A DNA stretch of 64,000 bases from Prolixibacteraceae bacterium (GTDB taxonomy: Bacteria > Bacteroidota > Bacteroidia > Bacteroidales > Prolixibacteraceae): positions 3,906,001 to 3,970,000 of the forward strand of contig CP082230.1 in NCBI GenBank assembly GCA_019856515.1. The letters run 5' to 3'. Shown one piece after another: positions 4,348 to 62,440 of this stretch. Within the stretch, counting starts at the first letter, position 1. Each line of letters starts with the position of its first letter. The notes beneath the pieces were generated by a model, which was not told the DNA's origin, did no database searches, and saw only the letters and a list, made by a program, of their open reading frames with translations. Made by a program: the position numbers and the translations under genes.

Positions 4348-7300
4348 ATGAAGAAACAATATTCTTTATTCTTACTTCTACTCCTGTTCTGTTGTTCTTG
4401 GAGCGTTAGCGCACAAGAGACAAGAACAATTCATGGGGTAGTGTTCGATGCTGCTTCTGGAGAAACGCTTCCTGGAGCATCTGTATTTCTAGACAACACC
4501 GTTGTAGGTGTATTAAATGAAGTACAGAGTAATACTGTAGTCAACTATAGTCAAGGAACAATTTCAAATATCAATGGTGTATTTTCATTGAAGGTTCCAA
4601 AAAGTGCTGAATTCGTATCTTGTAGCTTTGTAGGCTATGAAACGAAAAAAATAGCTATTCCTTCTTCTGGTAAGTTGGTCATTCAACTTAAGTCTGATGT
4701 ATCAAACATAGAAGAGATTGTTGTGACTGGTTACCAAAATATCAAAGAGCGTAAACTAACCGCATCTGTAGTGAAGCTTAAAACAGATGATATTATCCAA
4801 GCAAACGTTTCGAGTATCGATCAAATGCTTGCAGGACAGTTAGCTGGTGTGCAAACTACTGTTACATCAGGTGCTCCAGGTGCTCCAGCAAAGATACGTA
4901 TTCGTGGTAATGCATCACTGAATGGATCCCAAGATCCTCTTTGGGTAGTGGATGGTGTTCCTTTGACTAATACGGATGTACCTAGCCTTGATGGTAAAGA
5001 TATTAGTGACCTTACGAATAGTAGTATTGCTGGTCTGAACCCGAACGACATTGAAAGTATCACAGTTCTTAAAGATGCTGCAGCGACTGCTATCTATGGT
5101 GCTCGTGCATCAAATGGTGTAATTGTTGTTACCACCAAAAAAGGTAAAAAGGGTAAGGTTAATGTGAACATTAACTCTAATATCTCTTTTGTACAGCGTC
5201 CAAAAATGAATGACTTAAACTTACTGAATGCGAGTGAGAAAGTTGATCTAGAACTTCAGATGGCTGGCAGAACTGATTTCTCACCTTGGGGATCTTATAA
5301 TTATCATGGTGGTGAGGTGATGAGAATCTTAGAGAATGATAAGAATGGCCAAAGTAATGAGCTTTCAATTTATCAAGATAAAGGCTTCGATCATCTAAGT
5401 AAAGTAAAGCAAGATCAAATCAGTGCATTGAGATCAAGTGGGTCTGATTGGGGAAAAGAAATTTATCGTTCTGCTGTGAATCAAAATCATAACCTTAGTG
5501 TATCAGGAGGTAGTGATTTTGCAACCTACTATGTGTCTATGGGATACTATGATGAAAAAGGTACGACTGTAGGGACTGGAATGAATAGAAGTAGTATAAC
5601 GATGCGTACGGACTTTAATGTAACTAACAATTTAAATGTTGGCCTTAAAGTATTCGCAAATAGACGTAAAAACTCATCTTTCCTACAAGGAACTGAAAAT
5701 TATACCAACCCAAATAGATACTCGAGAAATGTGAACCCATACTTGAATATTTACAATAAAGATGGTAGCTATAAGTATGATCGAGATACGCAGACAAATG
5801 GTAATGAATATTTGCCATTTAACTTTGTAGAGGAACGAGAAGGTACAATGTATAACCTTACATCAATGAGTTATTTAGCTCAGTTTGATTTAGAATGGAG
5901 GATATTGAAAGACTTAACATTCCGTTCTACTTTAGGTTATCAGTATGATCAATCGTTAGCTGAAAAACGTGCAGATTGGGAAACATTCTATTCGAGACAT
6001 CGTAATTATAAATCAGAGTATACGGATAGTGATGGCAATAAACAACATTTTCTTCCAGAAGGACAAATTAGAAATAATTTGGATCGCCGTATCAATCAAT
6101 GGAATGTTAAGAATATTTTAGAATACAATAAAACTTTCGGAAGTAAACATGAACTTGATTTGATGATAGGTGATGAAATCAGACATGATGATCTTGCACA
6201 GCGTGAGTCATGGGTGTATGGTTTTAATCCAGTTACATTAACATCGAAACCTTTAGTCTATCACAGAGAAAGTGATGCAAATGGATTTCCAACTTATGGA
6301 GAAGCTGCTGCAGAGAATGCATATGTTTCTTACTTTGGTACATTTAGTTATAGCTTTGATCGCCGTTATTCATTATTTGGTAGTATTAGAACTGATGCAT
6401 CAAATATTTTTGGAAAGAATACGAATGATCTGTTCGTTCCTTTATGGGCAATGGGTGCAGCTTGGAATATTGATAAAGAAGCATTTTATAATCTTGATTT
6501 TATGAATAAGGCCAAATTACGTCTTTCATATGGTCTTCAGGGGAATATTGATAAGTCAACAGCCCCTACTCTTGTAGGAGAATGGAATCAGCACAATATT
6601 CTTGGTGGGTTAAACGAAAATGCGATTGTAGTAACAGGAGCACCCAACCCAGATTTGATGTGGGAAAAAACTACAAACTACGATCTAGGAATTGAGTTGG
6701 GATTCTTTAAAAATCGTTTACAGTTTACTGCAGATATTTATTCTCGTAATTCTTATGACTTAATTGGAACAAAAGAATTAGCACATGAGACTGGTTTTTA
6801 TACATCTCCAGTGAACTGGGCTGAGGTTAGTAATAAAGGTTATGAATTAAGTTTGACTGCTCAGCCTATTAGATCAAAACGATTTAGTTGGGATGTTACA
6901 TTTAACTGGTCACATAATAAAGATCAGGTGGAAAAAATACATGTTGGAGATCAGCAGGTAGTACCATCTCGTGAAGGATTACCAGTAAATGCGATGTTTG
7001 GTTTTAAAACCAGAGGTTTGAGTGAAACTGGAATGCCAATATATGATGATAATGGAAAGGGAGTATCTGCAACAGAGTTTTTTAAACTAGAAGCATTATG
7101 GGATTATGCTCCATTGACAGCTTCTACATTAAGCTCTGATGAAATTAGAGATAGATATACTTATATGGGTACGACAGATCCAAAGTTCACCGGAGGTATT
7201 GTAAATAGTTTTCGTTATAAAGGATTTACACTTTATGTTGCTGCAAACTTCTTCTTAAAAGGAATGAAACGTGAAACACCATTCTATAGTGCAGGTTCTT

Positions 7301-7710
7301 TTGATCGATCAAGAAACTATTCTAGTAAGGTTAATCAAATTTGGTCTCCTGAGAATAAAGATGGAGTTTATCCTGCAATTATGTCTTCCACTAGTGATCC
7401 TGAAAACCCATATGAATACTATGCATATAACTCAGGTGGTTTAGGTTCCTTTGAGCCTTTTAAAGATCTAGATATTTGGTTTAAGGAAGTAAACTATATT
7501 CGTATTTCAAATATTCGATTGAGTTACAATCTTCCAAAGAGTTTTACAGACAAACTTGGAGTTGGTACTACTTCTGTGAAAGTTGAAGCATTAAATCCGT
7601 TTGTGTTTGGAACGGACTATAGTGGCTATTTTGATCCTGAGACATATGGTAGTGTATATTCTCAACCAATTGCGAAGTCATTCTCCGTTGGTCTAAACCT
7701 AAGTTTCTAA
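4348..7710 (+). CDS. SusC/RagA-family TonB-linked outer membrane receptor (pair 1)
   Basis: 1120 residues. Signal peptide at 1-22 (LFLLLLLFCCSWSVSAQ). Next comes a carboxypeptidase-regulatory-like beta-sandwich domain (about 26-112, LPGASVFLDN) with an insertion of roughly 20 residues around NEVQSNTVVNYSQGT. The TonB plug follows (about 128-260; motifs RIRGNASLNG, DPLWVVDGVPL, TVLKDAAATAIYGARASNGVI), then a long beta-barrel ending in aromatic SFSVGLNLSF. It should import a nutrient across the outer membrane with energy from TonB, its lid being the SusD protein encoded 21 bases downstream. Substrate is unknown; the metalloprotease upstream favours peptides. Its plug differs clearly from those of the two other SusC proteins in this window. 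Confidence 0.95.
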   Translation: MKKQYSLFLLLLLFCCSWSVSAQETRTIHGVVFDAASGETLPGASVFLDNTVVGVLNEVQSNTVVNYSQGTISNINGVFSLKVPKSAEFVSCSFVGYETKKIAIPSSGKLVIQLKSDVSNIEEIVVTGYQNIKERKLTASVVKLKTDDIIQANVSSIDQMLAGQLAGVQTTVTSGAPGAPAKIRIRGNASLNGSQDPLWVVDGVPLTNTDVPSLDGKDISDLTNSSIAGLNPNDIESITVLKDAAATAIYGARASNGVIVVTTKKGKKGKVNVNINSNISFVQRPKMNDLNLLNASEKVDLELQMAGRTDFSPWGSYNYHGGEVMRILENDKNGQSNELSIYQDKGFDHLSKVKQDQISALRSSGSDWGKEIYRSAVNQNHNLSVSGGSDFATYYVSMGYYDEKGTTVGTGMNRSSITMRTDFNVTNNLNVGLKVFANRRKNSSFLQGTENYTNPNRYSRNVNPYLNIYNKDGSYKYDRDTQTNGNEYLPFNFVEEREGTMYNLTSMSYLAQFDLEWRILKDLTFRSTLGYQYDQSLAEKRADWETFYSRHRNYKSEYTDSDGNKQHFLPEGQIRNNLDRRINQWNVKNILEYNKTFGSKHELDLMIGDEIRHDDLAQRESWVYGFNPVTLTSKPLVYHRESDANGFPTYGEAAAENAYVSYFGTFSYSFDRRYSLFGSIRTDASNIFGKNTNDLFVPLWAMGAAWNIDKEAFYNLDFMNKAKLRLSYGLQGNIDKSTAPTLVGEWNQHNILGGLNENAIVVTGAPNPDLMWEKTTNYDLGIELGFFKNRLQFTADIYSRNSYDLIGTKELAHETGFYTSPVNWAEVSNKGYELSLTAQPIRSKRFSWDVTFNWSHNKDQVEKIHVGDQQVVPSREGLPVNAMFGFKTRGLSETGMPIYDDNGKGVSATEFFKLEALWDYAPLTASTLSSDEIRDRYTYMGTTDPKFTGGIVNSFRYKGFTLYVAANFFLKGMKRETPFYSAGSFDRSRNYSSKVNQIWSPENKDGVYPAIMSSTSDPENPYEYYAYNSGGLGSFEPFKDLDIWFKEVNYIRISNIRLSYNLPKSFTDKLGVGTTSVKVEALNPFVFGTDYSGYFDPETYGSVYSQPIAKSFSVGLNLSF

Positions 7711-9853: not shown

Positions 9854-12800
9854 ATGAGAAAACAATTGTTAATTTGGGCCTTCTTGGTCTTGGTTACGAT
9901 ACAGTCTGCTTTTGCACAGACTCGTGTTATAACAGGTAATGTTATAGCAAGTAAAGATCAACAACCAATTCCAGGGGCATCTGTTGTTGTCACTTCAACG
10001 ACAGTTGGTACTGTAACTGATTTTGATGGAAACTTCTCTTTAAAAGTTCCTTCTGATGCTTCTAATATCACTGTGAGTTTCATGGGAATGAAATCACAAG
10101 TCGTTTCACTAACTGAGCAAAAAAACTATAGCGTTGTTCTAGCAGAAGATAATATTGCGATGGATGAGGTTGTCATCACAGCTCTCGGTATATCAAGAGA
10201 TAAAAAGGCACTAGGTTATTCCGTACAGAATGTTGGTGGTGATGATTTAACTCAAACGAAACAGAGCAATGTTGTATCTGCGCTTTCAGGTAAAGTGTCT
10301 GGAGTACAAGTCTCAGGATCTTCTGGATCAATGGGTGGTTCTAGTCGTATTTTGATACGTGGTGCTAGTTCTATCACAGGTAACAACCAACCTCTTTTCG
10401 TTGTAGATGGTGTCCCTATTGATAATTCAGACTTCAATGGTTCAGAAGCTGCACGAGGTGCTGGTGGATATGATTATGGTAATATGGCTCAGGATATTAA
10501 TCCTGAAGATATTGAAACAATGTCTGTACTGAAAGGACCTTCTGCTGCTGCACTATATGGTTCACGTGCTGCTAATGGTGTGATCATGATTACTACAAAG
10601 AAAGGTTCAAAGGGAAATAAAGGTATCGGTGTAAGTGTGAGCACTGGTGTTTCTATTGAGAAAGTGAATCGTCTTCCTGATTACCAAACATCTTATGGTG
10701 GTGGTATTGGTGGTTTTGAAGAAGTAACTTTCAATGGTCAATCTTATGATGCTGTGAGTTATAATATTGATGAGAGCTGGGGACCTAAATACGATCCTAA
10801 CAAACAAGTCCTTCATTGGGATGCATTCAATCAAAATGATCCATCTACATACTTAAAGACACGTCCTTGGATAGCGCCAGAGCATGATGTGGAAGATTTC
10901 TTCGATACAGGAGTGACATACAATAACTCTGTTTCTCTTTCGGGATCTGACGATAAAGGTTCATTTAGAATGTCTATATCAAGTGTGAATACCGATGGAT
11001 ATATGCCAAACTCTAATCTTGATAAATATACTGTTAGCTTTAATGGTTCTCGTAAATTGTCCGATAAATTTACCGTTAACGCTGGGGTGTCATATGTAAA
11101 CACTGCTGCATTAGGACGTCCTGAAACGGGCTATGGTGACAATAATGTCATGGTGAAGTTTACCCAGTGGGGACAGCGCCAGTTGGATATGGAGCATTTG
11201 AAGAACTATAAGAATCCAGATGGAACTCAAAATAGTTGGAATAGAACTTCTGCATATGATGGAACACCTGCTTATTCGAACAATCCATATTGGACACGTT
11301 ACGAGAATTATACGGAAGATGAAAGAAACCGTTATATCGGAAATATTGGATTGACTTATGATGTTACAAGTGATCTAAAGGCAAGTCTAAAAACTTACCA
11401 TGATTCCTACACTTTCCGTAATAGTCAACGTTCTGCTATTGGTTCACAAGAGACTTCTGGTTATTCAGAGCAAGTACGTCAATCTGTGGAGAATAATTAT
11501 GAATTCATGTTGAACTATAATAAGCAATTGACTGATGACCTTAGTTTAACAGCAATGGCTGGGGGAAACATACGTAAGAATAACTATTATTCTAACTATG
11601 CAACCACTCAGGGGGGACTTGTTCTGCCTGATCTATATACAACTACGAACTCAAAAGATCCTTCTAAGGTTACCGACTATGAGGAGCATAAGTTAGTTTA
11701 TAGTGCTTATGGTAACTTTAGTTTAGGATATAAGAATACATACTACTTTGATGCCACATTCCGTAACGATTGGTCTTCTACTTTACCTGAAGCTCATCGT
11801 TCGTTTTTCTATCCATCATTTACAGGTAGTCTTGTTCTTTCTGAATTAAATGGACTGAAAGATTTATCTTGGTTCTCTTTTGGTAAGATACGTGCTGGAT
11901 GGGCCATGGTAGGTAATGATACAGACCCTTACTCTTTGAAAGAAACTTTTACAAACTATCAGCCTAATTTTGATGGTACTCCACGTTACAGTACTCCGAA
12001 TACTCTGCCTAATGAGAATCTGAAGCCAGAGACTACTTATTCATGGGAAATTGGAGCGGAACTGAAGTTCTTCAAAAACCGTTTGGGAGTCGACGCGACT
12101 TACTACTCTAATCGTACAGAGGATCTTATTACCAATGTGGCATTATCAGGATCTACAGGTTACCTGTACAAAACGATGAATGCGGGAGTCATGAGTAATA
12201 AAGGTATTGAGTTAATGTTAACTGGTACACCTGTTCAAACACGTGATTTTTCATGGGATATTGCAGTGAACTTTGCAAAGAACAGCAACAAATTAGTTGA
12301 GTTAACAGATGGAATTGATAACTACCAAATGGCTAGAGCTCCTTTCAATGTGACAGTAAATGCGTTCGTTGGAGAGTCTTATGGTGCAATAATGGGTAGA
12401 AACTATGTCTACGACGATGCAGGAAACAAAGTCATTGGAACCAATGGTCGTTATCTAAAAACTGATTCACCAGAAGTACTAGGTACTGTACTTCCTGATT
12501 TCAATATGGGACTTAACAACTCTTTCAGCTACAAAAACTTTACGTTTACTGCTTTGATTGATATTCAACAAGGTGGTAGCTACTTCTCTACTTCAAATAT
12601 GTGGGGAATGTATTCAGGGATGATCCAAGAATCTGTATATCACAATGGTGTGGATATTCGAGAGAATGGAATTGTTTTAGATGGTGTATACGGAAGAGTC
12701 GATGGTAATGGAAATGTAGTACATACCGATGCTGCTGGGGATGTCTCAGGAAATGCTGTGGACAATGAGACTAATATCTCTGCTCAGCGCTATGCTTCAG

Positions 12801-13078
12801 ACTTCTATTCTGGACCTGATGCTCAAAGTGTTTTTGATGCTTCGTATATCAAATTACGTGAAGTTACATTTGGTTATACTTTCCCAAGTCGTCTTACAGG
12901 ACCAATAAGAAACCTAAATATTTCATTGTATGGACGAAATCTTGCTGTTTGGGGATTGGATAATCCTGATTTTGATCCAGAATCGGCTGTAACTTCTTCA
13001 GGAAACGTACAAGGAATTGAAGGTGGTGCATTACCTTCTACAGCAAACTATGGTGTTAACCTGAAATTTAGCTTCTAA
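9854..13078 (+). CDS. SusC/RagA-family TonB-linked outer membrane receptor (pair 2)
   Basis: 1074 residues. Signal peptide 1-21 (LLIWAFLVLVTIQSAFAQ), carboxypeptidase-regulatory-like domain (about 26-105, IPGASVVVTSTTVGTVTDFDG), TonB plug (about 117-260; VSALSGKVSGVQVSG, QPLFVVDGVPIDN, SVLKGPSAAALYGSRAANGV), then the barrel ending NYGVNLKFSF. It is nearly identical in the plug to SusC 3 (15228-18461) and closely similar along the barrel, so the two are recent paralogs. It should form a lidded outer-membrane importer with the SusD-like protein 49 bases downstream. Expressed from its own promoter at 9658-9687. Substrate unknown. Confidence 0.95.
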   Translation: MRKQLLIWAFLVLVTIQSAFAQTRVITGNVIASKDQQPIPGASVVVTSTTVGTVTDFDGNFSLKVPSDASNITVSFMGMKSQVVSLTEQKNYSVVLAEDNIAMDEVVITALGISRDKKALGYSVQNVGGDDLTQTKQSNVVSALSGKVSGVQVSGSSGSMGGSSRILIRGASSITGNNQPLFVVDGVPIDNSDFNGSEAARGAGGYDYGNMAQDINPEDIETMSVLKGPSAAALYGSRAANGVIMITTKKGSKGNKGIGVSVSTGVSIEKVNRLPDYQTSYGGGIGGFEEVTFNGQSYDAVSYNIDESWGPKYDPNKQVLHWDAFNQNDPSTYLKTRPWIAPEHDVEDFFDTGVTYNNSVSLSGSDDKGSFRMSISSVNTDGYMPNSNLDKYTVSFNGSRKLSDKFTVNAGVSYVNTAALGRPETGYGDNNVMVKFTQWGQRQLDMEHLKNYKNPDGTQNSWNRTSAYDGTPAYSNNPYWTRYENYTEDERNRYIGNIGLTYDVTSDLKASLKTYHDSYTFRNSQRSAIGSQETSGYSEQVRQSVENNYEFMLNYNKQLTDDLSLTAMAGGNIRKNNYYSNYATTQGGLVLPDLYTTTNSKDPSKVTDYEEHKLVYSAYGNFSLGYKNTYYFDATFRNDWSSTLPEAHRSFFYPSFTGSLVLSELNGLKDLSWFSFGKIRAGWAMVGNDTDPYSLKETFTNYQPNFDGTPRYSTPNTLPNENLKPETTYSWEIGAELKFFKNRLGVDATYYSNRTEDLITNVALSGSTGYLYKTMNAGVMSNKGIELMLTGTPVQTRDFSWDIAVNFAKNSNKLVELTDGIDNYQMARAPFNVTVNAFVGESYGAIMGRNYVYDDAGNKVIGTNGRYLKTDSPEVLGTVLPDFNMGLNNSFSYKNFTFTALIDIQQGGSYFSTSNMWGMYSGMIQESVYHNGVDIRENGIVLDGVYGRVDGNGNVVHTDAAGDVSGNAVDNETNISAQRYASDFYSGPDAQSVFDASYIKLREVTFGYTFPSRLTGPIRNLNISLYGRNLAVWGLDNPDFDPESAVTSSGNVQGIEGGALPSTANYGVNLKFSF

Positions 13079-15227: not shown

Positions 15228-18200
15228 ATGAGAAAGCAATTACTAATCCTTGTAACATTACTATTGTGTAGTGTGCAAGTTTCATTAGCACAGACCAGAG
15301 TTATTACTGGGGTGGTGCGATCTGCATCAGATAACTCTGTAATCCCAGGGGCATCTGTTGTTGTAACTTCAACAACTGTTGGTACTGTAACTGATTTTGA
15401 TGGTGCCTTTAAACTTAAAATTCCAGAAGGTGCTCCATCTTTGACGATAAGTTTCATTGGAATGAAAAAGATAGTTCTTCCTTTGACCGACAAAATTGTT
15501 TATGATGTCACTCTAGAAGAGGATCATGTTGCTGTGGGTGAAGTAGTAGTTGCTGCCTTAGGAATCTCAAGAGAGAAAAAATCTTTGGGTTATTCAGTTC
15601 AAAATGTTAGTGGTGATGAATTGAACCAAACCAAACAGAGTAATGTTGTTTCTGCTCTTTCTGGAAAAGTATCAGGAGTACAAGTGTCAGGTTCTTCAGG
15701 ATCTATGGGAGGATCAAGTCGTATTCTTATTCGTGGTGCAAGTTCTGTTACAGGTAATAACCAACCTTTATTTGTTGTGGATGGGGTTCCAATCGATAAT
15801 TCTAATTTCAACTCGTCAACGGCTGAGCGTGGTGCTGGAGGATATGACTATGGTAATATGGCTCAAGATATCAATCCAGAGGATATTGCGACGATGTCTG
15901 TTCTTAAAGGCCCATCAGCTGCAGCACTATATGGATCTCGTGCTGCTAACGGTGTGATCATGATCACTACCAAGAAGGGCAGTAAAGGAAATGGAATTGG
16001 AATATCTGTAAGTTCAGGTGTTGCTTTTGAGAGAGTTAATCGTCTGCCTCAATATCAAACTAGTTATGGTGGTGGTAATGGTTCTTTTGAGCAAGAAGAG
16101 ATCAATGGACAGAAATATAATGTAGCAGCTTATAAAGTAGATGAAAGTTGGGGACCTAAATACGATCCAACCTTACAAGTACTACACTGGGATGCCTTTT
16201 TAAATGGCGATAAAGACTTAAAAACACGTCCTTGGGTAGCTCCTGCAAATGATGTGGAAAAATTCTTTGACACTGGTGTTACTTATAACAACTCTGTCTC
16301 TTTTGCTGGTGGTAATGAAAAAAGCAAGTTTAGAATGTCAATATCTAGTGTTAATACAGATGGATATATCCCAAACTCAAACTTAGATAAGTATACTATT
16401 AGCTTTAATGGTTCAACTGCATTAACAGATAAATTAAAAGTTACAGCAGGTGTGTCATATGTAAATACTGCAGCATTAGGTCGTCCTGAAACTGGGTATG
16501 GTGATAATAATATTATGGTGAAGTTTTCTCAATGGGGTCAGCGTCAGGTAGACATGGATCGTTTGAAGAACTACAAGAATGATGATGGTACACAGAATAC
16601 TTGGAATAGAACCTCTTCAAGTAATTCTGCTCCTAAATATCATGATAATCCATATTGGACAAGATATCAGAACTATTCAGAGGATGAGCGTGCTAGATAT
16701 ATGGGTAATGTAGGTCTTACTTATGACTTTAATAAATCGTTGAAAGCAAGTGTAAAAACATATCATGACTCATATGTGTTCCGTAGTTCTGAACGTGTTG
16801 CTGTTGGTTCCCAAAAGACTTCAAGTTATGCAGAGCGCGTAAGACAATCAAACGAGAATAACTTTGAAGGAATGTTGAATTTTAATAAGAATGTTACTGA
16901 TGATATTAGTGTTGCTGCCATGGTTGGTGGAAATATTAGAAAAAATGCATATCATTATAATTATGTATCTACTAAAGGTGGATTGAACCTGCCAAATCTT
17001 TACGTTGTATCAAACTCGAAGGATCCTGTTGAAACTATAGATAAATATACATCAATGAGACCAATTGAGAAAAAATTAGTTTATAGTGCATATGGAAGTT
17101 TAGGCTTAGGTTTCAAAAATACCTATTATCTTGATGCAACTTTCCGTAATGATTGGTCATCCACTCTTCCAATTGAGAATCGCTCATTTTTCTACCCTTC
17201 ATTTACAGGAAGTGTTGTTATCTCGGAGCTATCAGCTCTTAAAGATCTTCCATGGTTTACTTTCGGTAAAGTTCGAGCTGGATGGGCGATGGTAGGTAAT
17301 GACACTAGTCCATATTCACTACAGGAGACTTATACAAATTATCAACCAAATTTTGGAGGTGTTGCTCGTTATAGTACGCCAAACACACTTCCTACTGCAA
17401 CATTAAAACCAGAGATTACTAAATCATGGGAAATCGGTGCTGAATTGAAGTTCTTTAATAACCGTATAGGAATTGATGCTACATACTATTCGAATCGTAC
17501 AGAAGATTTGATTACAAGTGTTGCAGTATCTCCAGCAAGTGGTTATCTATATAACAAGATGAATGCAGGGGTAATGACCAACAAGGGCTTTGAAATCATG
17601 TTTACTGCTACTCCAATCCAGACATCTGATTTCTCTTGGGATCTGTCTTTGAACTTTGCGAAGAACAACAACAAATTAGTAGAACTTGCTGAAGGTATCG
17701 ACAACTATAAAATGGCGAATGCGCCGTTTGAAGTTACTGTAAATGCATTTGTAGGTGAGACTTACGGTGCAATTATGGGAACAAATTTTGTATTCGATAA
17801 TGCTGGTAATAAAATTGTTTCTACTAAAGGTGAATATTTGAAGTCCGAAACAGCTGAAGTATTGGGTACTGTGCTTCCTGATTATAATCTTGGTCTTAAC
17901 AACTCATTTAGATACAAAAACTTAACTGTAACTGCTCTTATCGATGTGCAAAAAGGTGGAAGTTACTTCTCTACGACAAACATGTGGGGAATGTATACAG
18001 GTATGTTAGAAGGATCTGTACACCAAAATGGCGTTGATATTCGTGAGAAGGGTATCGTCATTGATGGAGTATATGGTAAAATAGGAGATGATGGTAATGT
18101 AGTATATACAGATAAAGATGGCAATACCTCTGCATCTCCGATAGCGAATACAAAGAACCTTAAAGGGGAAGATTATTCAAGGGGTTATTATACTGGGCCT

Positions 18201-18461
18201 AATGCACAAAATGTGTTCGATGCTTCTTATATCAAGCTACGTGAAGTAACTGTGGGGTATACTATTCCTGGAAGATATACTGGTCCAATAAAGAATGTGA
18301 ATATATCATTGTATGGTCGTAACCTTGCTGTTTGGGGATTAAGCAATGAGTCATTTGACCCAGAATCTGCAGTAACTTCATCGGGAAATGTACAAGGTAT
18401 AGAAGGTGGAGCACTTCCTTCAACAGCAACTTTTGGAGTGAACCTAAAACTTAAGTTCTAA
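15228..18461 (+). CDS. SusC/RagA-family TonB-linked outer membrane receptor (pair 3)
   Basis: 1077 residues with the same order of parts as SusC 2: signal peptide (LLILVTLLLCSVQVSLAQ), carboxypeptidase-regulatory-like domain (IPGASVVVTSTTVGTVTDFDG), plug (VSALSGKVSGVQVSG, QPLFVVDGVPIDN, SVLKGPSAAALYGSRAANGV), and a barrel ending in FGVNLKLKF. Long identical peptide stretches with SusC 2, plus a shared leader just before ATG, indicate tandem duplication of a SusCD unit. Differences concentrate in barrel segments likely to form extracellular loops, which may mean altered substrate preference (inference). Its SusD partner begins 44 bases downstream. Confidence 0.95.
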   Translation: MRKQLLILVTLLLCSVQVSLAQTRVITGVVRSASDNSVIPGASVVVTSTTVGTVTDFDGAFKLKIPEGAPSLTISFIGMKKIVLPLTDKIVYDVTLEEDHVAVGEVVVAALGISREKKSLGYSVQNVSGDELNQTKQSNVVSALSGKVSGVQVSGSSGSMGGSSRILIRGASSVTGNNQPLFVVDGVPIDNSNFNSSTAERGAGGYDYGNMAQDINPEDIATMSVLKGPSAAALYGSRAANGVIMITTKKGSKGNGIGISVSSGVAFERVNRLPQYQTSYGGGNGSFEQEEINGQKYNVAAYKVDESWGPKYDPTLQVLHWDAFLNGDKDLKTRPWVAPANDVEKFFDTGVTYNNSVSFAGGNEKSKFRMSISSVNTDGYIPNSNLDKYTISFNGSTALTDKLKVTAGVSYVNTAALGRPETGYGDNNIMVKFSQWGQRQVDMDRLKNYKNDDGTQNTWNRTSSSNSAPKYHDNPYWTRYQNYSEDERARYMGNVGLTYDFNKSLKASVKTYHDSYVFRSSERVAVGSQKTSSYAERVRQSNENNFEGMLNFNKNVTDDISVAAMVGGNIRKNAYHYNYVSTKGGLNLPNLYVVSNSKDPVETIDKYTSMRPIEKKLVYSAYGSLGLGFKNTYYLDATFRNDWSSTLPIENRSFFYPSFTGSVVISELSALKDLPWFTFGKVRAGWAMVGNDTSPYSLQETYTNYQPNFGGVARYSTPNTLPTATLKPEITKSWEIGAELKFFNNRIGIDATYYSNRTEDLITSVAVSPASGYLYNKMNAGVMTNKGFEIMFTATPIQTSDFSWDLSLNFAKNNNKLVELAEGIDNYKMANAPFEVTVNAFVGETYGAIMGTNFVFDNAGNKIVSTKGEYLKSETAEVLGTVLPDYNLGLNNSFRYKNLTVTALIDVQKGGSYFSTTNMWGMYTGMLEGSVHQNGVDIREKGIVIDGVYGKIGDDGNVVYTDKDGNTSASPIANTKNLKGEDYSRGYYTGPNAQNVFDASYIKLREVTVGYTIPGRYTGPIKNVNISLYGRNLAVWGLSNESFDPESAVTSSGNVQGIEGGALPSTATFGVNLKLKF

Positions 18462-26398: not shown

Positions 26399-26473
26399 GG
26401 GAGATTAGCTCAGTTGGTTTAGAGCATCTGCCTTACAAGCAGAGGGTCGCTGGTTCGAATCCAGCATTTCCCA
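26399..26473 (+). tRNA. tRNA-Val (TAC), copy 1
   Basis: Cloverleaf: acceptor GGGAGAT/ATTTCCC, D arm GCTC/GAGC, anticodon stem TCTGC/GCAGA with loop CTTACAA (anticodon TAC), T arm GCTGG/CCAGC with TTCGAAT loop. Followed by CCA at 26474-26476, which the other two copies lack, so the encoded CCA may be chance. Confidence 0.96.
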
Positions 26474-26498
26474 CCATTGAACACATTGATATCCATTC

Positions 26499-26573
26499 GG
26501 GAGATTAGCTCAGTTGGTTTAGAGCATCTGCCTTACAAGCAGAGGGTCGCTGGTTCGAATCCAGCATTTCCCA
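26499..26573 (+). tRNA. tRNA-Val (TAC), copy 2
   Basis: Identical to copy 1 over the mature tRNA and placed exactly 100 bases later. Spacer contains TTGATATCCATTC. The 3' end is ACGA, so CCA must be added after transcription. Confidence 0.96.
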
Positions 26574-26598
26574 CGAAAAAACGTATTGATATCCATTC

Positions 26599-26673
26599 GG
26601 GAGATTAGCTCAGTTGGTTTAGAGCATCTGCCTTACAAGCAGAGGGTCGCTGGTTCGAATCCAGCATTTCCCA
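26599..26673 (+). tRNA. tRNA-Val (TAC), copy 3
   Basis: Identical mature sequence, again at 100-base spacing with the same spacer block TTGATATCCATTC. No encoded CCA. Followed directly by a terminator. Confidence 0.96.
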
Positions 26674-26680
26674 CATTAAG

Positions 26681-56961: not shown

Positions 56962-58551
56962 TTATTTCTTAAGAATCTTTTGAAATTCAACGGTTCCTCT
57001 TTCCCCATGTAGTTTCACTACATATAAGCCTGGAGCCAAAGTGCTAGCATCCACACCATCTTGTGCTGTAACAGTAAGATCTGCCACTTTATTTCCTAAG
57101 ATGCTATAAACCTCTACTCTGTTTATACGCTCTGTTCCTGAGATATTGAATTGTGAAACAACTGGATTAGGATAAATGGTCCATTGTGCTTGTTTCTTAT
57201 CATCGCCTACTGCAGTCGAAGTAGATTTCTTTGTAGATACGTTAATATCATCTAATAACAAGTTAGTTGCTGTTGCATCACTGAAATTAGTTCTGAAAGC
57301 AAAACGTACTTTTTTTCCAGCAAAATCAGAAAGATTTACTTTTCCTGAATTTGTCCACTCTGGGGTGTAATAGTACCCCTTGTTCGTTTCTCCCCAAGTA
57401 ACTCTTGATGTGATGTTATGCGTTGCAGTGATTTGATCCGCAGGATCTCCATCTCCATCATATCCTGTATATCCTTCAATTACTAGAAGTTCAATATTGT
57501 AATTTGCGAACGTTCCATATCTTACAGAGTTTTTAAATTCCATATATGCATTAGAAACATTTGTTAAGTCAAGCTCAGGTGAAATAAACCATGCTACACG
57601 ATTAAGATTGGCATTTTTTCCTGTAAGTCTTACATATCTATTATCTATACCAAATTTTCCAGCTTCAAACTCTTTAGTAGAATTTGATTGGAAAACATAG
57701 AAGTTCTGTTGATTAAGATCCGCCACTTGATTAATTGCATGTTTTTCGAATTCACTTCCTACAGGGCCAATTTGATATCCATCAACGTATGCGCCACCAA
57801 AGTCAGCTCCTGCAACAGTACCATATGAATCATCTTCGAAGTCTACAGATAATGAAGATGTGAAGCCCGAGTAGTCAACTTGTTCTGTTACACGAATATC
57901 ACCTATACGAAACATTAATGGAGAACCATTATCTGCTTTAGTACCAGTATAATCACAGGTGTATTTGACGGCAATTCTTACATTCTTACCAACAAACGGA
58001 GCTAGCTCAATCGTATGTCTGTAGTATTCTATTTTTGGGTCAACAGTGTTATCAATTTGTTTATATTCAGCAGGAGTAATATCAGTCCATGTTGCTGCTT
58101 GAATATTTGCACTGTTAACGTCTCCCGAAAAATCAGTTGTTGCTAGAATTTGTACTCGTGATTGTCCACCTGATTTATCTGCACTACGAATAGAGTAGTA
58201 GTAGTCAAGATTAACTGCCCCAATTGCATTTTGTAGGTTGACTTGATCTAATACTAACCAAGACTCTGTTTCGGTAACAGTTGTTCCGTTGCTTTCTAAG
58301 GCTGTTATTGCTACGTACTTGTAGTCATCCGTAGCTGCTGGACGTGTGTAATCAATTAGACTTTCACTAATTTTGTTACCCCTAGTCCAAATCTTTTCTG
58401 TTTCTGGTGCATTCCCTATAATAGTCACAGGAGTGGCTCCATTACTACCTTTTAGGTATCTTAAAGTTGGATAAAATAATACTGATTCCTGAGCGAATAC
58501 ACTTGAAAATGCCACTAGTGACATAGTAATTAAAAGTAGAACTTTTTTCAT
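56962..58551 (-). CDS. T9SS-exported adhesin-like protein (choice-of-anchor J domains)
   Basis: 529 residues. Signal peptide KVLLLITMSLVAFSSVFAQ. Two jelly-roll segments of the cleaved-adhesin/choice-of-anchor J kind (about 75-225, SWLVLDQVNL; and about 235-435, SVDFEDDSYG ... WFISPELDLTNVSNAYMEFKNSV, KVRFAFRTNFSDATATNLLLDDINV). C-terminal type A T9SS sorting domain (about 450-529, WTIYPNPVVSQFNISG, GLYVVKLHGERGTVEFQKILKK). A secreted surface or extracellular protein, perhaps for attachment or substrate binding. No catalytic domain seen. Confidence 0.88.
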   Translation of the reverse strand: MKKVLLLITMSLVAFSSVFAQESVLFYPTLRYLKGSNGATPVTIIGNAPETEKIWTRGNKISESLIDYTRPAATDDYKYVAITALESNGTTVTETESWLVLDQVNLQNAIGAVNLDYYYSIRSADKSGGQSRVQILATTDFSGDVNSANIQAATWTDITPAEYKQIDNTVDPKIEYYRHTIELAPFVGKNVRIAVKYTCDYTGTKADNGSPLMFRIGDIRVTEQVDYSGFTSSLSVDFEDDSYGTVAGADFGGAYVDGYQIGPVGSEFEKHAINQVADLNQQNFYVFQSNSTKEFEAGKFGIDNRYVRLTGKNANLNRVAWFISPELDLTNVSNAYMEFKNSVRYGTFANYNIELLVIEGYTGYDGDGDPADQITATHNITSRVTWGETNKGYYYTPEWTNSGKVNLSDFAGKKVRFAFRTNFSDATATNLLLDDINVSTKKSTSTAVGDDKKQAQWTIYPNPVVSQFNISGTERINRVEVYSILGNKVADLTVTAQDGVDASTLAPGLYVVKLHGERGTVEFQKILKK

Positions 58552-58980
58552 AAGCCAAATTGATTTTATTATTTACACTATTAGTTTTTTTGAACAGTAA
58601 CTTATTCTTTGTTGATCATGAGTTTTTAAAGGTGCATGACCATGATAAAGCATAACAGTGCAAATATTATAATTCAAATTTCAACTCGATGGTATAATCG
58701 TTCAGTAGAAATATCACTATAGTCCAACGTGGGTTATCCCTATAATCGTGGTTGTGTGAATTTTGTGTTTATAATCTACTGATTTACAGGCGTGTGTGTA
58801 TATGGGTAGAGTCCCATATTATTTAAATGTGCTACACAACATACATAATATTTGTCACGAGTTGTGATTAAATGTTTTGTATAGTCCACTCTTTTATTAA
58901 CAATATGATTAATAGGGTAGTGTCTTGTTCTGCGTGTAAACTATTGAGGGGTAGATTCATAATTAGGCATAAATAAAAAA
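58552..58980. other. Divergent intergenic region before the hairpin array
   Basis: About 430 bases without a gene. Near-consensus boxes exist (for example AATATTTG on plus at about 58847) but no perfect TAnnTTTG was found, so promoter positions remain open. Confidence 0.4.
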
Positions 58981-59006
58981 GGTTCGAATGAACTATCATT
59001 CGAACC
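58981..59006 (+). other. First stem-loop of the array
   Basis: GGTTCGAATGA (58981-58991), loop ACTA, TCATTCGAACC (58996-59006): perfect 11-bp stem preceded by AAAAAA. Followed by GTGTTA/TAACAC (59032-59048), the small hairpin of unit 1. Confidence 0.75.
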
Positions 59007-59084
59007 CAACTTGCAATTAATGCAAAGTACGTGTTATTCCCCTTAACACTAAAACTATAACCAACTATCTATATATCTAAATCT

Positions 59085-59156
59085 ATGAAATCTCTTTTTG
59101 AAATATCTTGTCGATCAAACAGTGTGTTTGACCAACAAGACCTAATAACTAACTAA
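59085..59156 (+). CDS. Micro-ORF 1 of the array (23 codons)
   Basis: Starts MKSLFEISCRSNSV and ends FDQQDLITN; the coding stretch includes a large hairpin TCAAACA/TGTTTGA. Translation is unproven; the conserved leader and ATG argue for it. No homolog recognised. Confidence 0.35.
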   Translation: MKSLFEISCRSNSVFDQQDLITN

Positions 59157-59211
59157 ACCGTGTTGAGAACACGAAACTAAAACCAACTATCTATATCTAT
59201 ATCTAAAATCT

Positions 59212-59283
59212 ATGAAATCTCTTTTTAAAATATCTTGTCGATCAAACAGAGTGTTTGACCAACAAGACCTAATAACTAACTAA
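59212..59283 (+). CDS. Micro-ORF 2 of the array (23 codons)
   Basis: MKSLFKISCRSNRV then FDQQDLITN. Differs from unit 1 by Glu-to-Lys at position 6 and Ser-to-Arg at the hairpin loop. Translation unproven. Confidence 0.35.
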   Translation: MKSLFKISCRSNRVFDQQDLITN

Positions 59284-59331
59284 ACCGTGTTGAGAACACG
59301 AAACTAAAACCAACTATCTATATCTAAATCT

Positions 59332-59403
59332 ATGAAATCTCTTTTTAAAATATCTTGTCGATCAAACAGTATGTTTGACCAACAAGACCTAATAACTAAC
59401 TAA
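59332..59403 (+). CDS. Micro-ORF 3 of the array (23 codons)
   Basis: MKSLFKISCRSNSM then FDQQDLITN. Loop triplet is GTA; the stem is unchanged. The loop change creates a TATGTTTG box found only in this unit. Confidence 0.35.
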   Translation: MKSLFKISCRSNSMFDQQDLITN

Positions 59404-59451
59404 ACCGTGTTGAGAACACGAAACTAAAACCAACTATCTATATCTAAATCT

Positions 59452-59523
59452 ATGAAATCTCTTTTTAAAATATCTTGTCGATCAAACAGAGTGTTTGACC
59501 AACAAGACCTAATAACTAACTAA
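59452..59523 (+). CDS. Micro-ORF 4 of the array (23 codons)
   Basis: Same peptide as micro-ORF 2. Followed by a small hairpin with loop AAA instead of GAG (CGTGTTAAAAACACG). Confidence 0.35.
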   Translation: MKSLFKISCRSNRVFDQQDLITN

Positions 59524-59572
59524 ACCGTGTTAAAAACACGAAACTAAAACCAACTATCTATATCTAAAATCT

Positions 59573-59599
59573 ATGAAATCAAATTTATTGTTCTTGTAA
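59573..59599 (+). CDS. Micro-ORF 5 of the array (8 codons)
   Basis: MKSNLLFL, then stop. Followed by a perfect 14-bp stem ACTTAGGATAGAAC (59614-59627) and GTTCTATCCTAAGT (59631-59644). Confidence 0.25.
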   Translation: MKSNLLFL

Positions 59600-59726
59600 T
59601 CGAGAAAAAGATAACTTAGGATAGAACCTTGTTCTATCCTAAGTAAAATATCTGCTTATGAAAAAAAACGTGTTATTAATAATAACACAAAACTAAAACC
59701 AACTATCTATATCTATATCTAAATCT

Positions 59727-59744
59727 ATGAAATCTCATTACTAA
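59727..59744 (+). CDS. Micro-ORF 6 of the array (5 codons)
   Basis: MKSHY, then stop. Preceded by TGTTATTA/TAATAACA (59671-59687) and followed by a 9-bp stem GTGGTGGAG (59773-59781) with CTCCACCGC (59791-59799). Confidence 0.2.
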   Translation: MKSHY

Positions 59745-59877
59745 GAACTGTAGAGTCTTTTTTAGAAAAAAAGTGGTGGAGTAATTGATCCTCCACCGCT
59801 CAAAATATCTGCTTATGAAAAAAACGTGTTATCTTGTAACACAAAACTAAAACCAACTATCTATATCTAAAAAATCT

Positions 59878-59895
59878 ATGAAATCTCTACAATGA
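59878..59895 (+). CDS. Micro-ORF 7 of the array (5 codons)
   Basis: MKSLQ, then stop. Last unit before the histidine kinase promoter. Preceded by the stem GTGTTA/TAACAC (59826-59842). Confidence 0.2.
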   Translation: MKSLQ

Positions 59896-60071
59896 TTGTT
59901 GTGGTATTTACAGAAACCCAACATTTAAAAGAACTCTGTAATAAACAAGTGAACTTGTTCCCTATTTGTTACATTACAAATGTAGGGTGAAAGAACAGAC
60001 ATTGCGGTTAAAGCGCGGTTAATTACAGTTAACGAAAAGTTAACACACTAAATATGCTCCTTTTTATTACT

Positions 60072-60079
60072 TATCTTTG
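60072..60079 (+). promoter_or_regulatory. -7 promoter element for the two-component operon
   Basis: TATCTTTG matches TAnnTTTG, about 27 bases before the start codon. No -33 TTTG at the right distance. This suggests the kinase is not read mainly from the array upstream. Confidence 0.55.
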
Positions 60080-60105: not shown

Positions 60106-61701
60106 ATGAAGAAAGCTTACATTAATTTATTAATTGGTCTTATGACCATCTCTTTGGCTGGTATCACAGGTATTCAAATTTATTGGATTAAGAATGCCAT
60201 AGACGTCAAGAACGAAATCTTTGAACGTAGCGTTAATGATGCGATATACCAAACAGCTCGCCGACTTGAGAACTATAAGAAGATGGAGTTTGCAAACCAT
60301 ATTCTCTTTTCTGATTCCCTTAATATAAATAAACTACTATTAAAGGGTGGCCAGATTGTACAGGGAATGGTCCCTCAAAATATGATTCCTCAAGGTAAGG
60401 TTACAGTCGAAATTCAGGCTCACCCCTATCTAAATCAAATGAATCAGAACAACCTTCATATTGACATCCCTTTAGATCCTGAAGTAAAGCGTCAAATACA
60501 ACAAAGCAGTAATTCTAAAGCAACACAACAAGTTGGTCCAACTCAGAGTGCATCTAGAAGTCTAGATGTCGAACTAAAAAATATTAATGGTTCCATTATG
60601 GAGCAAATGGGTGAAATCGAGAGCTTCATGATGAAGGTTGCCAATGAAGTTAGGAGTTGGGAAGAAGGACACAAGATGGACCCTAAGTTGGTGAATAAAA
60701 TATTAAATGAAGAGTTACGTAATAAAGGAATAAAAACAGATTATGCCTACTGCTTGTCTGCCCAAAATAAGAGACTATTTTGCTCTTCTAATGAATTTGA
60801 AAGTAAAAAAGCAACTTACGCCTCTCTCTTTCCATCCGCAATACTTCGAATGGGTTATAAGCTTGGGGTTAGTTTCCCTCACCGTAAGAACTATATTGTA
60901 GGATCTATCGTTGGAATGCTGCTACTGTCCACTCTATTTTCATTAATAATTATTGTGACTTTTGCATTGAGTCTTTATCTTATATTGAAGCAGCGAAAGA
61001 CATCGGCGATGCAGAATGACTTTATTAATAATATGACCCATGAGTTCAAGACTCCTATCGCGACAATTGGTGTGGCTGCCGACACAATAATGAATGACCG
61101 TATTATTGATAATCCAGAACAGATATCTTTCTTTGCACAGATGATTAAGAAAGAGAATAAACGAATGAATTCACATGTAGAGAAGATCCTTCGTATTGCT
61201 CGTTTTGAAAGAAAAGAGCTCGAATTAAACTTTACTGAATTTGATGTTCATGAACTTCTTGAGAGGTGTATACAAAGCTTTAAGCTACAAGTAGAGCAGA
61301 GAGGTGGAAGTATCTATTTCGAACCAGATGCAAAGAATCCAATGATTTTTACTGATCCGAATCACTTCTCTAGTGTGATTAATAATTTACTAGACAATGC
61401 AAATAAATATTCTTCAGAAGCTCCTGAAATAACTGTTCGTACTCGAAACAAAGAGGGCGGTGTTCTGTTCTCTGTAGAAGACAAGGGGATGGGAATGAGT
61501 CGTTCTGTTCAAAATAAAGTCTTTGAACGTTTCTATCGTCAGACCTCTGGAAATATCCATAATGTCAAAGGATTTGGTCTTGGATTGAACTATGTAAAAG
61601 CCATCGTAGATGCCCATAAAGGTAAAGTAACGGTGAAGAGTGAGCCTGGTAAAGGGAGTACATTTGAGGTCTATATTCCTCACTATGTAAACGTAAAGTA
61701 A
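60106..61701 (+). CDS. RprX-like sensor histidine kinase
   Basis: 531 residues. Two membrane helices (about 7-27 and 263-296) enclose a periplasmic sensor region of about 235 residues rich in Gln and Asn. HisKA motif MTHEFKTPIATIG with His312, N-box LLDNANKYSS, G1 EDKGMGMS, F-box VFERFYRQ and G2 GFGLGLNYVKAI. Layout and start MKKAYINLLIGLMTISL resemble the RprX kinases of Bacteroidales. Paired with a response regulator gene 31 bases downstream. Signal unknown; envelope stress is a guess from related systems. Confidence 0.93.
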   Translation: MKKAYINLLIGLMTISLAGITGIQIYWIKNAIDVKNEIFERSVNDAIYQTARRLENYKKMEFANHILFSDSLNINKLLLKGGQIVQGMVPQNMIPQGKVTVEIQAHPYLNQMNQNNLHIDIPLDPEVKRQIQQSSNSKATQQVGPTQSASRSLDVELKNINGSIMEQMGEIESFMMKVANEVRSWEEGHKMDPKLVNKILNEELRNKGIKTDYAYCLSAQNKRLFCSSNEFESKKATYASLFPSAILRMGYKLGVSFPHRKNYIVGSIVGMLLLSTLFSLIIIVTFALSLYLILKQRKTSAMQNDFINNMTHEFKTPIATIGVAADTIMNDRIIDNPEQISFFAQMIKKENKRMNSHVEKILRIARFERKELELNFTEFDVHELLERCIQSFKLQVEQRGGSIYFEPDAKNPMIFTDPNHFSSVINNLLDNANKYSSEAPEITVRTRNKEGGVLFSVEDKGMGMSRSVQNKVFERFYRQTSGNIHNVKGFGLGLNYVKAIVDAHKGKVTVKSEPGKGSTFEVYIPHYVNVK

Positions 61702-61732: not shown

Positions 61733-62440
61733 ATGTCAGATAAATCACGAATATTCTTTTTAGAAGATGATCTTAGTTTCGGGACGGTACTAAAATCATA
61801 TTTAGAGATCAACAACTACGATGTTACATGGGTTAATGACGGAGCATTAGCTGTAGATACATTTAAGAAGAGTCATTATGATTTATGTATCCTTGATGTC
61901 ATGCTTCCTAATGTCGATGGTTTCTCTGTAGGCAAAGAGATTCGACTTATTAACAAAGATATTCCGTTGATATATCTTACAGCAAAAGCGATGAAAGAAG
62001 ATATTCTTCAAGGTTATCATGTTGGAGCGGATGACTATATTACTAAACCTTTTGATACTGAAGTGTTGATTTGTAAAGTTCAAGCAATTCTTAGTCGTAA
62101 AGGAAACAAAGAAGAGGAACAGCAGGAGGAGTATCGAATTGGAACAGTCTCTTTCTCTCCAATCACAAGAGTGATCAAATCAGGAAATACAACCAAACAG
62201 TTATCACCTAAGGAAGCTGCACTATTAGAACTTCTTTGTCAACATAAGAATAAACTGCTGACTAGAGAGACTGCACTGAAGAAGATTTGGGGTGAAGATG
62301 ACTATTTTACTGCAAGAAGTATGGATGTGTTTATCACCAAATTGAGAAAATATATGAAACTAGATCCAAATATTGAGATTAAGAATATTCATGGAAGTGG
62401 ATTTATTATGACAGATGGACCAGATCTTAGCTCTTATTAA
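61733..62440 (+). CDS. OmpR/RprY-like response regulator
   Basis: 235 residues. Receiver domain (1-120) with acidic pocket Glu11-Asp12-Asp13, phosphoacceptor Asp55 in LCILDVMLPN, Thr83 and Lys105 in YITKPFD. DNA-binding winged helix (about 135-230; LSPKEAALLELLCQHKN, RSMDVFITKLRKYMKLDPNIEIKNIHGSGFIM) is OmpR/PhoB type. Phosphorylated by the kinase encoded upstream. Target genes cannot be read from the sequence; the divergent TolC gene downstream is not obviously linked. Confidence 0.95.
   Translation: MSDKSRIFFLEDDLSFGTVLKSYLEINNYDVTWVNDGALAVDTFKKSHYDLCILDVMLPNVDGFSVGKEIRLINKDIPLIYLTAKAMKEDILQGYHVGADDYITKPFDTEVLICKVQAILSRKGNKEEEQQEEYRIGTVSFSPITRVIKSGNTTKQLSPKEAALLELLCQHKNKLLTRETALKKIWGEDDYFTARSMDVFITKLRKYMKLDPNIEIKNIHGSGFIMTDGPDLSSY

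What the first reader, a model, noticed from the sequence alone, without database searches (positions are those of the whole stretch)
58981..59895. Tandem array of stem-loop plus leader plus identical start codon, in a gene-free region
Seven units repeat a large hairpin, a small hairpin, a constant leader (core AACCAACTATCTATATCTAA) and ATGAAATC. Among units 1-4 differences lie mostly in hairpin loops (loop triplets GTG, GAG, GTA, GAG; small-hairpin loop GAG or AAA). In units 5-7 the stem sequences are different but still fully paired. That pattern suggests selection for RNA folding and for a repeated translation start, not simple satellite DNA. Possible roles (inference): an array of small RNAs, a regulatory decoy for a leader-binding protein or ribosome, or leftover recombination sites from a cassette system.
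Basis: seen in the sequence. Interest (0 to 1): 0.8.

Follow-up and report, generated by a model that had tools for sequence, protein, structure and literature searches.

The report
Tandem array of candidate small RNAs
Beside a two-component sensor gene pair, a group of related Bacteroidota carries a chain of repeated RNA-like units whose constant part is predicted to pair with the start codons of nutrient-import genes, which could let one signal switch many surface proteins off together; none of this has been tested in cells.

Summary
The array is real (seven units, window 58976-59885). It lies at the same place in the four genomes of this genus that the searches returned; 57 other relatives have no array (pattern search), and a covariance search of 295 genomes of the order hit the own genome only. 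Read leftward, it follows a TAnnTTTG box at fixed distance from a putative four-repeat operator of the neighbouring RprXY-like two-component system and ends at a terminator-like hairpin. Each unit is a 40-nt element (E1), a small hairpin, in some units a second element (E2; two of seven here), and a changing long hairpin. E1 is identical over 40 nt in three species whose silent sites are near saturation. Its predicted pairing is strongest with start regions of SusC importer genes (G000: -15.5 vs -11.7 kcal/mol in controls, p=2.7e-7), seen again in two sister species; two array-less genera show it more weakly, so part is generic. [quoted passage not shown] Best reading: a two-component-controlled array of base-pairing sRNAs. 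Transcription, control, processing and repression are inferred.

The parts
60007..60043 (.). Putative RprY operator: four GTTAA direct repeats (60007, 60018, 60028, 60039; spacing 11, 10, 11)
   Evidence: Positions; similar repeats upstream of RprX-like kinase genes in other Bacteroidota; the only exact four-repeat match, both strands, in about 1.26 Mb of this genome examined. Binding by the regulator is inferred.
59977..59984 (-). Leftward -7 box TACATTTG (TAnnTTTG) of the putative array promoter; start site expected near 59970
   Evidence: A TAnnTTTG box is present here in all four genomes of the genus; box 30-31 nt left of the first repeat in 31 of 37 rows with an operator (my recount). Consensus TAnnTTTG recalled.
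60072..60079 (+). Rightward -7 box TATCTTTG of the histidine kinase gene
   Evidence: 27-28 nt after the last repeat in 27 of 37 rows (my recount)
59886..59970 (-). Presumed leader of the array RNA
   Evidence: Between the promoter box and the first unit
59735..59885 (-). First unit of the leftward RNA: E1, H1, E2, H2
   Evidence: R1 model hit 93.8 bits
59581..59734 (-). Second unit: E1, H1, E2, H2 (14-bp stem)
59460..59580 (-). Third unit: E1, H1, GGTTTAGTTAGTTATTAG element, 17-bp H2; contains the exact 40-nt E1 used in the tests (59541-59580)
59340..59459 (-). Fourth unit, same type as the third
59220..59339 (-). Fifth unit, same type as the third
59093..59219 (-). Sixth unit, same type as the third
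58976..59092 (-). Terminal unit: E1, H1, a small hairpin, then the terminator; no E2
   Evidence: R1 hit 59 bits
58975..59006 (-). Terminator-like end for leftward transcription: 11-bp stem 58981-59006 and U run 58975-58980
   Evidence: kept in the other three genomes
59811..59822 (-). E2 core of the first unit, antisense to GCTTATGAAAAA
59654..59665 (-). E2 core of the second unit, antisense to GCTTATGAAAAA
56962..58551 (-). Secreted surface protein (DUF5017, choice-of-anchor J, T9SS sorting tail): predicted E2 target; its start region 58544-58555 is the only other genomic GCTTATGAAAAA
   Evidence: homologues of 71%, 46% and 49% identity flank the array in G001, G002 and G003
60106..61701 (+). 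Histidine kinase, called RprX-like here because its partner is RprY-like; no family model named it so
61733..62440 (+). OmpR-type response regulator, best NCBIfam match RprY (287.7 bits, below the 370-bit cut-off)
15228..18461 (+). SusC-type importer gene: strongest predicted E1 partner, -25.1 kcal/mol at its start codon
9854..13078 (+). SusC-type importer gene: predicted E1 partner, -20.7 kcal/mol

Best explanation
The array is one non-coding transcription unit read leftward from a divergent promoter next to the rprXY-like genes and controlled by their regulator. The RNA is a chain of units, each with a largely unpaired 40-nt seed (E1), a constant small hairpin (H1), in some units a second seed (E2), and a long hairpin (H2); it ends at an intrinsic terminator. 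When the two-component system is active the RNA would be made, perhaps cut between units, and act as a multicopy base-pairing sRNA: E1 covers the start regions of a subset of SusC-type importer and other surface-protein mRNAs, and E2 covers the start codon of the flanking T9SS surface-protein mRNA, so that ribosomes cannot start. Shown by computation: array, synteny, strand-specific signals, conservation, excess predicted pairing. Inferred: transcription, control by the regulator, processing, repression.
For: Leftward box, its spacing to the operator, and the far-end terminator are kept in all four genomes. H2 stems are kept while sequence changes: between the second units of G000 and G001 all 14 pairs remain with four changed pairs, two changed on both sides (read by eye from sequences). 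Odd pairs in stems are G.U on the leftward strand more often than A.C, 42 to 19 over 36 distinct hairpins. E1 is less paired than the rest of its unit in 26 of 28 units, mean 0.58 vs 0.37 unpaired. E1 is identical over 40 nt in G000, G002 and G003 while four-fold sites of the kinase agree at 31% (G000-G002) and 41% (G000-G003). E1 with SusC starts: G000 -15.54 (n=32) vs -11.67 in 281 signal-peptide controls, p=2.7e-7; G002 -14.19 (26) vs -11.22 (65), p=2.7e-4. The excess peaks in windows starting -40 and -20 from the start codon and at E1 positions of the leftward RNA. Dinucleotide shuffles of E1 reaching the value: 0 of 300 in G000, 3 of 300 in G002. G003, against shuffles only: z -4.0, 0 of 400. 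E2 with the neighbour's start: -16.2, -20.5, -11.1, -12.2 kcal/mol in G000, G001, G002, G003; letter shuffles reaching it 0, 0, 14 and 0 of 300.
Against: No expression data. E1 also pairs better than its shuffles with SusC starts in two genera without the array (G032 z -2.65, 4 of 400 shuffles; G029 z -1.83, 19 of 400; G032 against controls p=0.0064), so part of the signal is a general SusC start signature; array versus array-less genomes differ only at p=0.028. SusC genes are paralogues, not independent. Only 11 of 32 SusC starts in G000 and 7 of 26 in G002 reach -17 kcal/mol, and 23 of 281 and 3 of 65 controls do too. Pairing energies ignore mRNA structure. E2 is in only two of seven units here and two of five in G001, and its pairing in G002 is weak. 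In 8 of 27 units the opposite strand folds better, and the whole array has a larger z on the plus strand. H1 hardly varies and gives no covariation support. Some scattered windows away from the start codon also show excess in G002 (to -1.28).
Confidence: 0.6

Rival explanations
1. The leftward array RNA is a sponge or protein decoy: repeated E1-H1 units bind an RNA-binding protein (RbpB-like or other) or ribosome component, and the fit to SusC starts reflects a shared binding or start signature, not pairing.
For: E1 is conserved far more strongly than the H2 part; the pairing signal is partly present in genera without the array; many near-identical copies suit titration.
Against: E1 is complementary to start regions rather than similar to them; 50 windows of the plus strand show no such preference; E2 separately matches the neighbour's start codon in four species.
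Confidence: 0.2
2. Structured leader or attenuator: transcription of the array runs on into the T9SS surface-protein gene and tunes it in cis.
For: Same strand and same neighbour in four genomes; many other Bacteroidota have a leftward gene with a signal-peptide-like start beside the same operator.
Against: A terminator-like hairpin with U run separates array and gene in all four genomes, followed here by about 420 nt before the gene; the E1 excess is at genes elsewhere.
Confidence: 0.13
3. Array of short peptides or repeated translation starts on the plus strand.
For: Seven ATGAAATC with a constant leader; four units here and two in G001 have similar 22-23-codon frames.
Against: Frames of 8, 5 and 5 codons in the other units here and mostly 5 or 9 codons in G002 and G003; promoter and terminator signals face the other way.
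Confidence: 0.04
4. Plain minisatellite or recombination residue without function.
For: Copies within a species are homogenised; copy number varies (5, 7 and 9 units in G001, G000 and G002).
Against: 40-nt identity between species near silent-site saturation, fixed synteny, stems kept through change, promoter box and terminator kept.
Confidence: 0.03

Closest known systems
FopS sRNAs of Bacteroides thetaiotaomicron (14 paralogues; PMC11697453, passages read)
   Same: Multicopy, structured, Bacteroidota; bind near the start codon of SusC mRNAs and repress translation; the authors think bile and perhaps other membrane stresses enhance them
   Different: FopS copies lie at multiple loci with canonical promoters; here one tandem, apparently single-promoter array beside a two-component system, with a second seed. 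Sequence homology to FopS was not tested (its letters were not held).
LhrC1-5 of Listeria under LisRK (PMC4132741, passages read)
   Same: Five copies of a similar sRNA, all dependent on one two-component system, bind a surface-protein mRNA and impede translation
   Different: Each copy has its own promoter; adjacency to the two-component genes is not mentioned in the passages seen; different phylum and motifs (recalled)
csRNAs of Streptococcus pneumoniae under CiaRH (PMC4507080, start of abstract seen in a search listing)
   Same: Five highly similar small RNAs controlled by one response regulator
   Different: Other target (comC) and phylum; separate genes (recalled)
CcsR tandem sRNAs of Rhodobacter sphaeroides (recalled; only a search listing seen)
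   Same: Tandem homologous sRNAs in one transcript (recalled)
   Different: Co-transcribed with a protein gene, sigma-factor controlled, other motifs (recalled)

Membership tests
Multicopy base-pairing sRNAs under a two-component system (LhrC/csRNA type) | Several similar structured units | tested here: met
   5 (G001), 7 (G000) and 9 (G002) units; in G003 six full units, one cut by a contig end, one degenerate and a terminal one
Multicopy base-pairing sRNAs under a two-component system (LhrC/csRNA type) | Transcription controlled by the response regulator | tested here: inconclusive
   Putative operator and promoter at fixed spacing; no binding or expression data
Multicopy base-pairing sRNAs under a two-component system (LhrC/csRNA type) | Own promoter for each copy | tested here: inconclusive
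   By motif only: TAGTTTTG, which fits TAnnTTTG, lies in some units, TAGTTTCG, which does not, in others
Multicopy base-pairing sRNAs under a two-component system (LhrC/csRNA type) | Pairs with start regions of surface-protein mRNAs | tested here: inconclusive
   Predicted excess pairing; no experiment
FopS family | Sequence homology to FopS/GibS | not tested
   FopS letters not held; no Rfam family reached its gathering score in the array
FopS family | SusC start-codon targeting | tested here: inconclusive
   Predicted only
FopS family | Dispersed copies | tested here: not met
   E1 core pattern with up to one mismatch in the own genome: six in the array, one hit inside a gene elsewhere
FopS family | Bound by RbpB | not testable with these tools
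   Needs CLIP or a shift assay
RprXY two-component system | Response regulator over the NCBIfam RprY cut-off | tested here: not met
   287.7 bits, best of 94 families at E <= 0.001, cut-off 370; hence 'RprY-like'
Integron attC or recombination array | Integrase nearby | tested here: inconclusive
   None among six neighbouring proteins scanned against Pfam; other genes not scanned

The most novel reading that the evidence does not exclude
A two-seed, single-promoter sRNA array wired to an RprXY-like system: one signal makes a long RNA carrying up to nine copies of an anti-SusC seed and two to eight copies of an anti-T9SS-protein seed, so the cell closes much of its nutrient-import surface at once, and species tune the strength by gaining or losing units. 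The array would stand where other Bacteroidota carry a secreted-protein gene at the same divergent operator.
Probability: 0.4. Interest if true: 0.75.

Novelty: new variant of a known kind. Interest (0 to 1): 0.6.

Why it matters
If true, it gives an RprXY-like two-component system an RNA arm, and shows that start-codon targeting of SusC importers by multicopy sRNAs, known from FopS in Bacteroides, also exists in another Bacteroidota group in a quite different, tandem form. The operator with two divergent boxes at fixed spacing could also be used at once to look for further targets of this regulator. In the listings of five paper searches (one search showed 10 of 11 papers and 10 of 24) I saw no title or abstract start reporting a tandem sRNA array beside rprXY or sRNAs in this group; subscription papers are mostly not held.

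Tried and rejected
Rejected: coding or peptide array (frames vary); recombination cassettes; minisatellite; a known Rfam family (weak hits far below gathering scores). E1 as exact antisense of one gene: AATCTATGAAATC outside the array only inside a frame on the other strand. GCTTATGAAAAA rarity alone is not significant: 3 sites, backward control also 3. E2 against SusC starts: weak (p=0.03, 1 of 100 shuffles as good). H1 covariation: uninformative. Comparable arrays upstream of other RprX-like kinases: none seen by TRF in 57 loci outside the genus ones, though short repeats were (TRF also missed the G001 array in one of its two loci). Control design: the first SusC test chose starts differently for SusC and controls; searches use one start rule and signal-peptide controls or shuffles. 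Rows dropped: G000 46 SusC loci fetched, 42 with a start, 32 with signal-peptide score; G002 30, 30, 26; G003 20, 19, 16; G032 30 loci, 25 used; G029 20 regions, 17 used. One search used 150 of the 281 G000 controls.

Full report
The array. Seven units lie between a histidine kinase gene (60106-61701, +) and a gene for a secreted DUF5017/T9SS-sorted protein (56962-58551, -). The genome is one 5.19-Mb contig. A search of 61 genomes with the core CCAACTATCTATATCTA found arrays in the four genomes of the genus (own included); of the other 57, two had a single one-mismatch hit. G001 and G002 carry the array between homologues of the same two genes; in G003 both contigs end inside the array, one carrying the kinase gene and the other the surface-protein gene, so adjacency there is inferred. 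The surface-protein homologues are 71%, 46% and 49% identical in G001, G002 and G003. A covariance model of the constant part hits seven units in the own genome and nothing in 294 other genomes of the order (sister genomes not in that draw; stricter filters used).

Which strand. Read leftward, each unit is GATTTCATAGATTTTAGATATAGATAGTTGGTTTTAGTTT (E1, with small length variants), a hairpin GTGTTA..TAACAC (H1), in some units TTTTTTTCATAAGCAGATATTT (E2), then a long hairpin (H2) that differs between unit types. E2 is in 2 of 7 units of G000, 2 of 5 of G001, 8 of 9 of G002 and in all 7 non-terminal units of G003 examined. Four units here carry GGTTTAGTTAGTTATTAG in place of E2. The last unit ends in an 11-bp stem and six U, a terminator only for leftward transcription; the other three genomes keep such an end. 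At the other end a TAnnTTTG box faces left in all four genomes. H2 of the third to sixth units is an unbroken 17-bp stem on the leftward strand with G.U pairs but is interrupted on the other strand (units fold at -28.7 to -29.1 against -17.5 kcal/mol). Over 27 units the leftward strand folds better in 19, and the odd pairs in 36 distinct hairpins are G.U 42 times and A.C 19 times (two H1 stems were picked out of register by that script). Against this, the whole array has a larger folding z on the plus strand (-13.2) than on the minus strand (-9.4), each from 20 shuffles.

The switch. The regulator gene behind the kinase is RprY-like: best NCBIfam match, but under the cut-off. Between the kinase promoter and the array promoter lie four GTTAA repeats spaced 11, 10, 11. 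Of 57 loci with a related kinase, 37 rows had a recognisable operator; a leftward TAnnTTTG box lies 30-31 nt from the first repeat in 31 of these 37 (my recount; the script's own count, 32, also takes one box at 20 nt). Six of the 37 rows are the four genomes of this genus, and about a dozen are Pontibacter species. A rightward box lies 27-28 nt after the last repeat in 27 of 37 rows (my recount). In many of the other loci a leftward frame with a signal-peptide-like start begins just left of the operator (no family search done on them); here the array takes that place. This makes a conserved divergent promoter pair under this regulator likely; binding is not shown. That OmpR-type regulators bind such direct repeats is recalled.

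Conservation. Four-fold sites of the kinase agree at 39% (G000-G001), 31% (G000-G002) and 41% (G000-G003), near or a little above chance for such AT-rich DNA, yet exact 40-nt E1 copies occur in G000 (1), G002 (5) and G003 (7), with further copies one T shorter in G000 (2), G002 (3) and G001 (1). Copies within a species are homogenised, so identity between species is the informative part. E1 is the less paired part of its unit in 26 of 28 units (0.58 against 0.37 unpaired).

E1 and SusC. In 832 gene starts from about 1.26 Mb the best E1 duplex was at a SusC start codon in the window (15228, -25.1 kcal/mol) and another SusC (9854) ranked seventh. With one start rule and signal-peptide controls: G000 32 SusC -15.54 against 281 controls -11.67, p=2.7e-7; G002 26 against 65, -14.19 against -11.22, p=2.7e-4. 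The excess peaks in windows starting -40 and -20 from the start codon in both species, is smaller at -60 and -80, and a few distant windows of G002 reach -1.28. Forty-base windows along the leftward RNA show it at E1; 50 windows of the plus strand and 300 T-rich 40-mers of the window do not reach it. In G002, windows over H1 and the GGTTTAGTTAGTTATTAG element also show excess. Of 300 dinucleotide shuffles of E1, 0 reach the G000 value, 3 the G002 value, none both (with 150 of the 281 G000 controls). Nine of the 40 best partners among 788 genes are SusC (42 SusC in the set); several others look like lipoproteins or secreted proteins by eye.

The important control. In genera without the array the same E1 still pairs better than its shuffles with SusC starts: G032 z -2.65 (4 of 400 shuffles as good), G029 z -1.83 (19 of 400), against -4.94 (G000, 0), -3.13 (G002, 1) and -4.00 (G003, 0). 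Pooled, 74 SusC of array genomes average -15.09 and 42 of array-less genomes -13.80, p=0.028. So E1 fits a general SusC start signature, and the fit is somewhat better where the array exists. SusC genes are related, so these p-values are optimistic.

E2 and the neighbour. GCTTATGAAAAA occurs three times in the genome: twice in the array and once over the start codon of the neighbouring surface-protein gene; the backward control also has three hits, so rarity alone proves nothing. But E2 pairs with that start in all four species: -16.2 (G000), -20.5 (G001), -11.1 (G002) and -12.2 (G003), with 0, 0, 14 and 0 of 300 letter shuffles as good. GCTTATGA sits at the start codon of 2 of 832 genes, and in G000 that gene ranks 8th of 832 for E2. 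The four genes are homologues, so these are not four independent events.

Reading. The simplest account is a two-component-controlled array of base-pairing RNAs. FopS sRNAs of Bacteroides repress SusC mRNAs by binding next to the start codon (PMC11697453, passages), and LhrC shows a multicopy sRNA under a two-component system acting on a surface-protein mRNA (PMC4132741, passages). RprY of Porphyromonas is linked to the oxidative stress response (PMC6032018, passages); the signal here is unknown. The array works like these in prediction; it is not shown to be homologous to FopS, and it differs in being one tandem array with apparently one promoter and two seeds. Expression, processing and repression remain to be tested.

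Noticed in passing
window 60007-60079 and loci L035-L090: Kinase genes related to this one share, in 37 of 57 loci examined, a GTTAA-repeat operator, mostly with two divergent TAnnTTTG boxes at fixed distances and often a leftward secreted-type frame.
   Followed up: partly
window 26399-26674: Three tRNA-Val(TAC) genes in a 100-bp tandem repeat.
   Followed up: no
window 4348-7710, 9854-13078, 15228-18461: Three SusC-type importer genes in the same window; two share the TCTATGAGAAA start context, also seen at a G003 SusC gene (L332).
   Followed up: partly
L031 310-469: One degenerate, rearranged unit near the terminator end of the G003 array.
   Followed up: no
L029 4215-5073: In six units of G002 the E2 anti-start element can pair within its own unit (TTCATAAGC with GCTTATGAA), so that seed may be masked there.
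   Followed up: no
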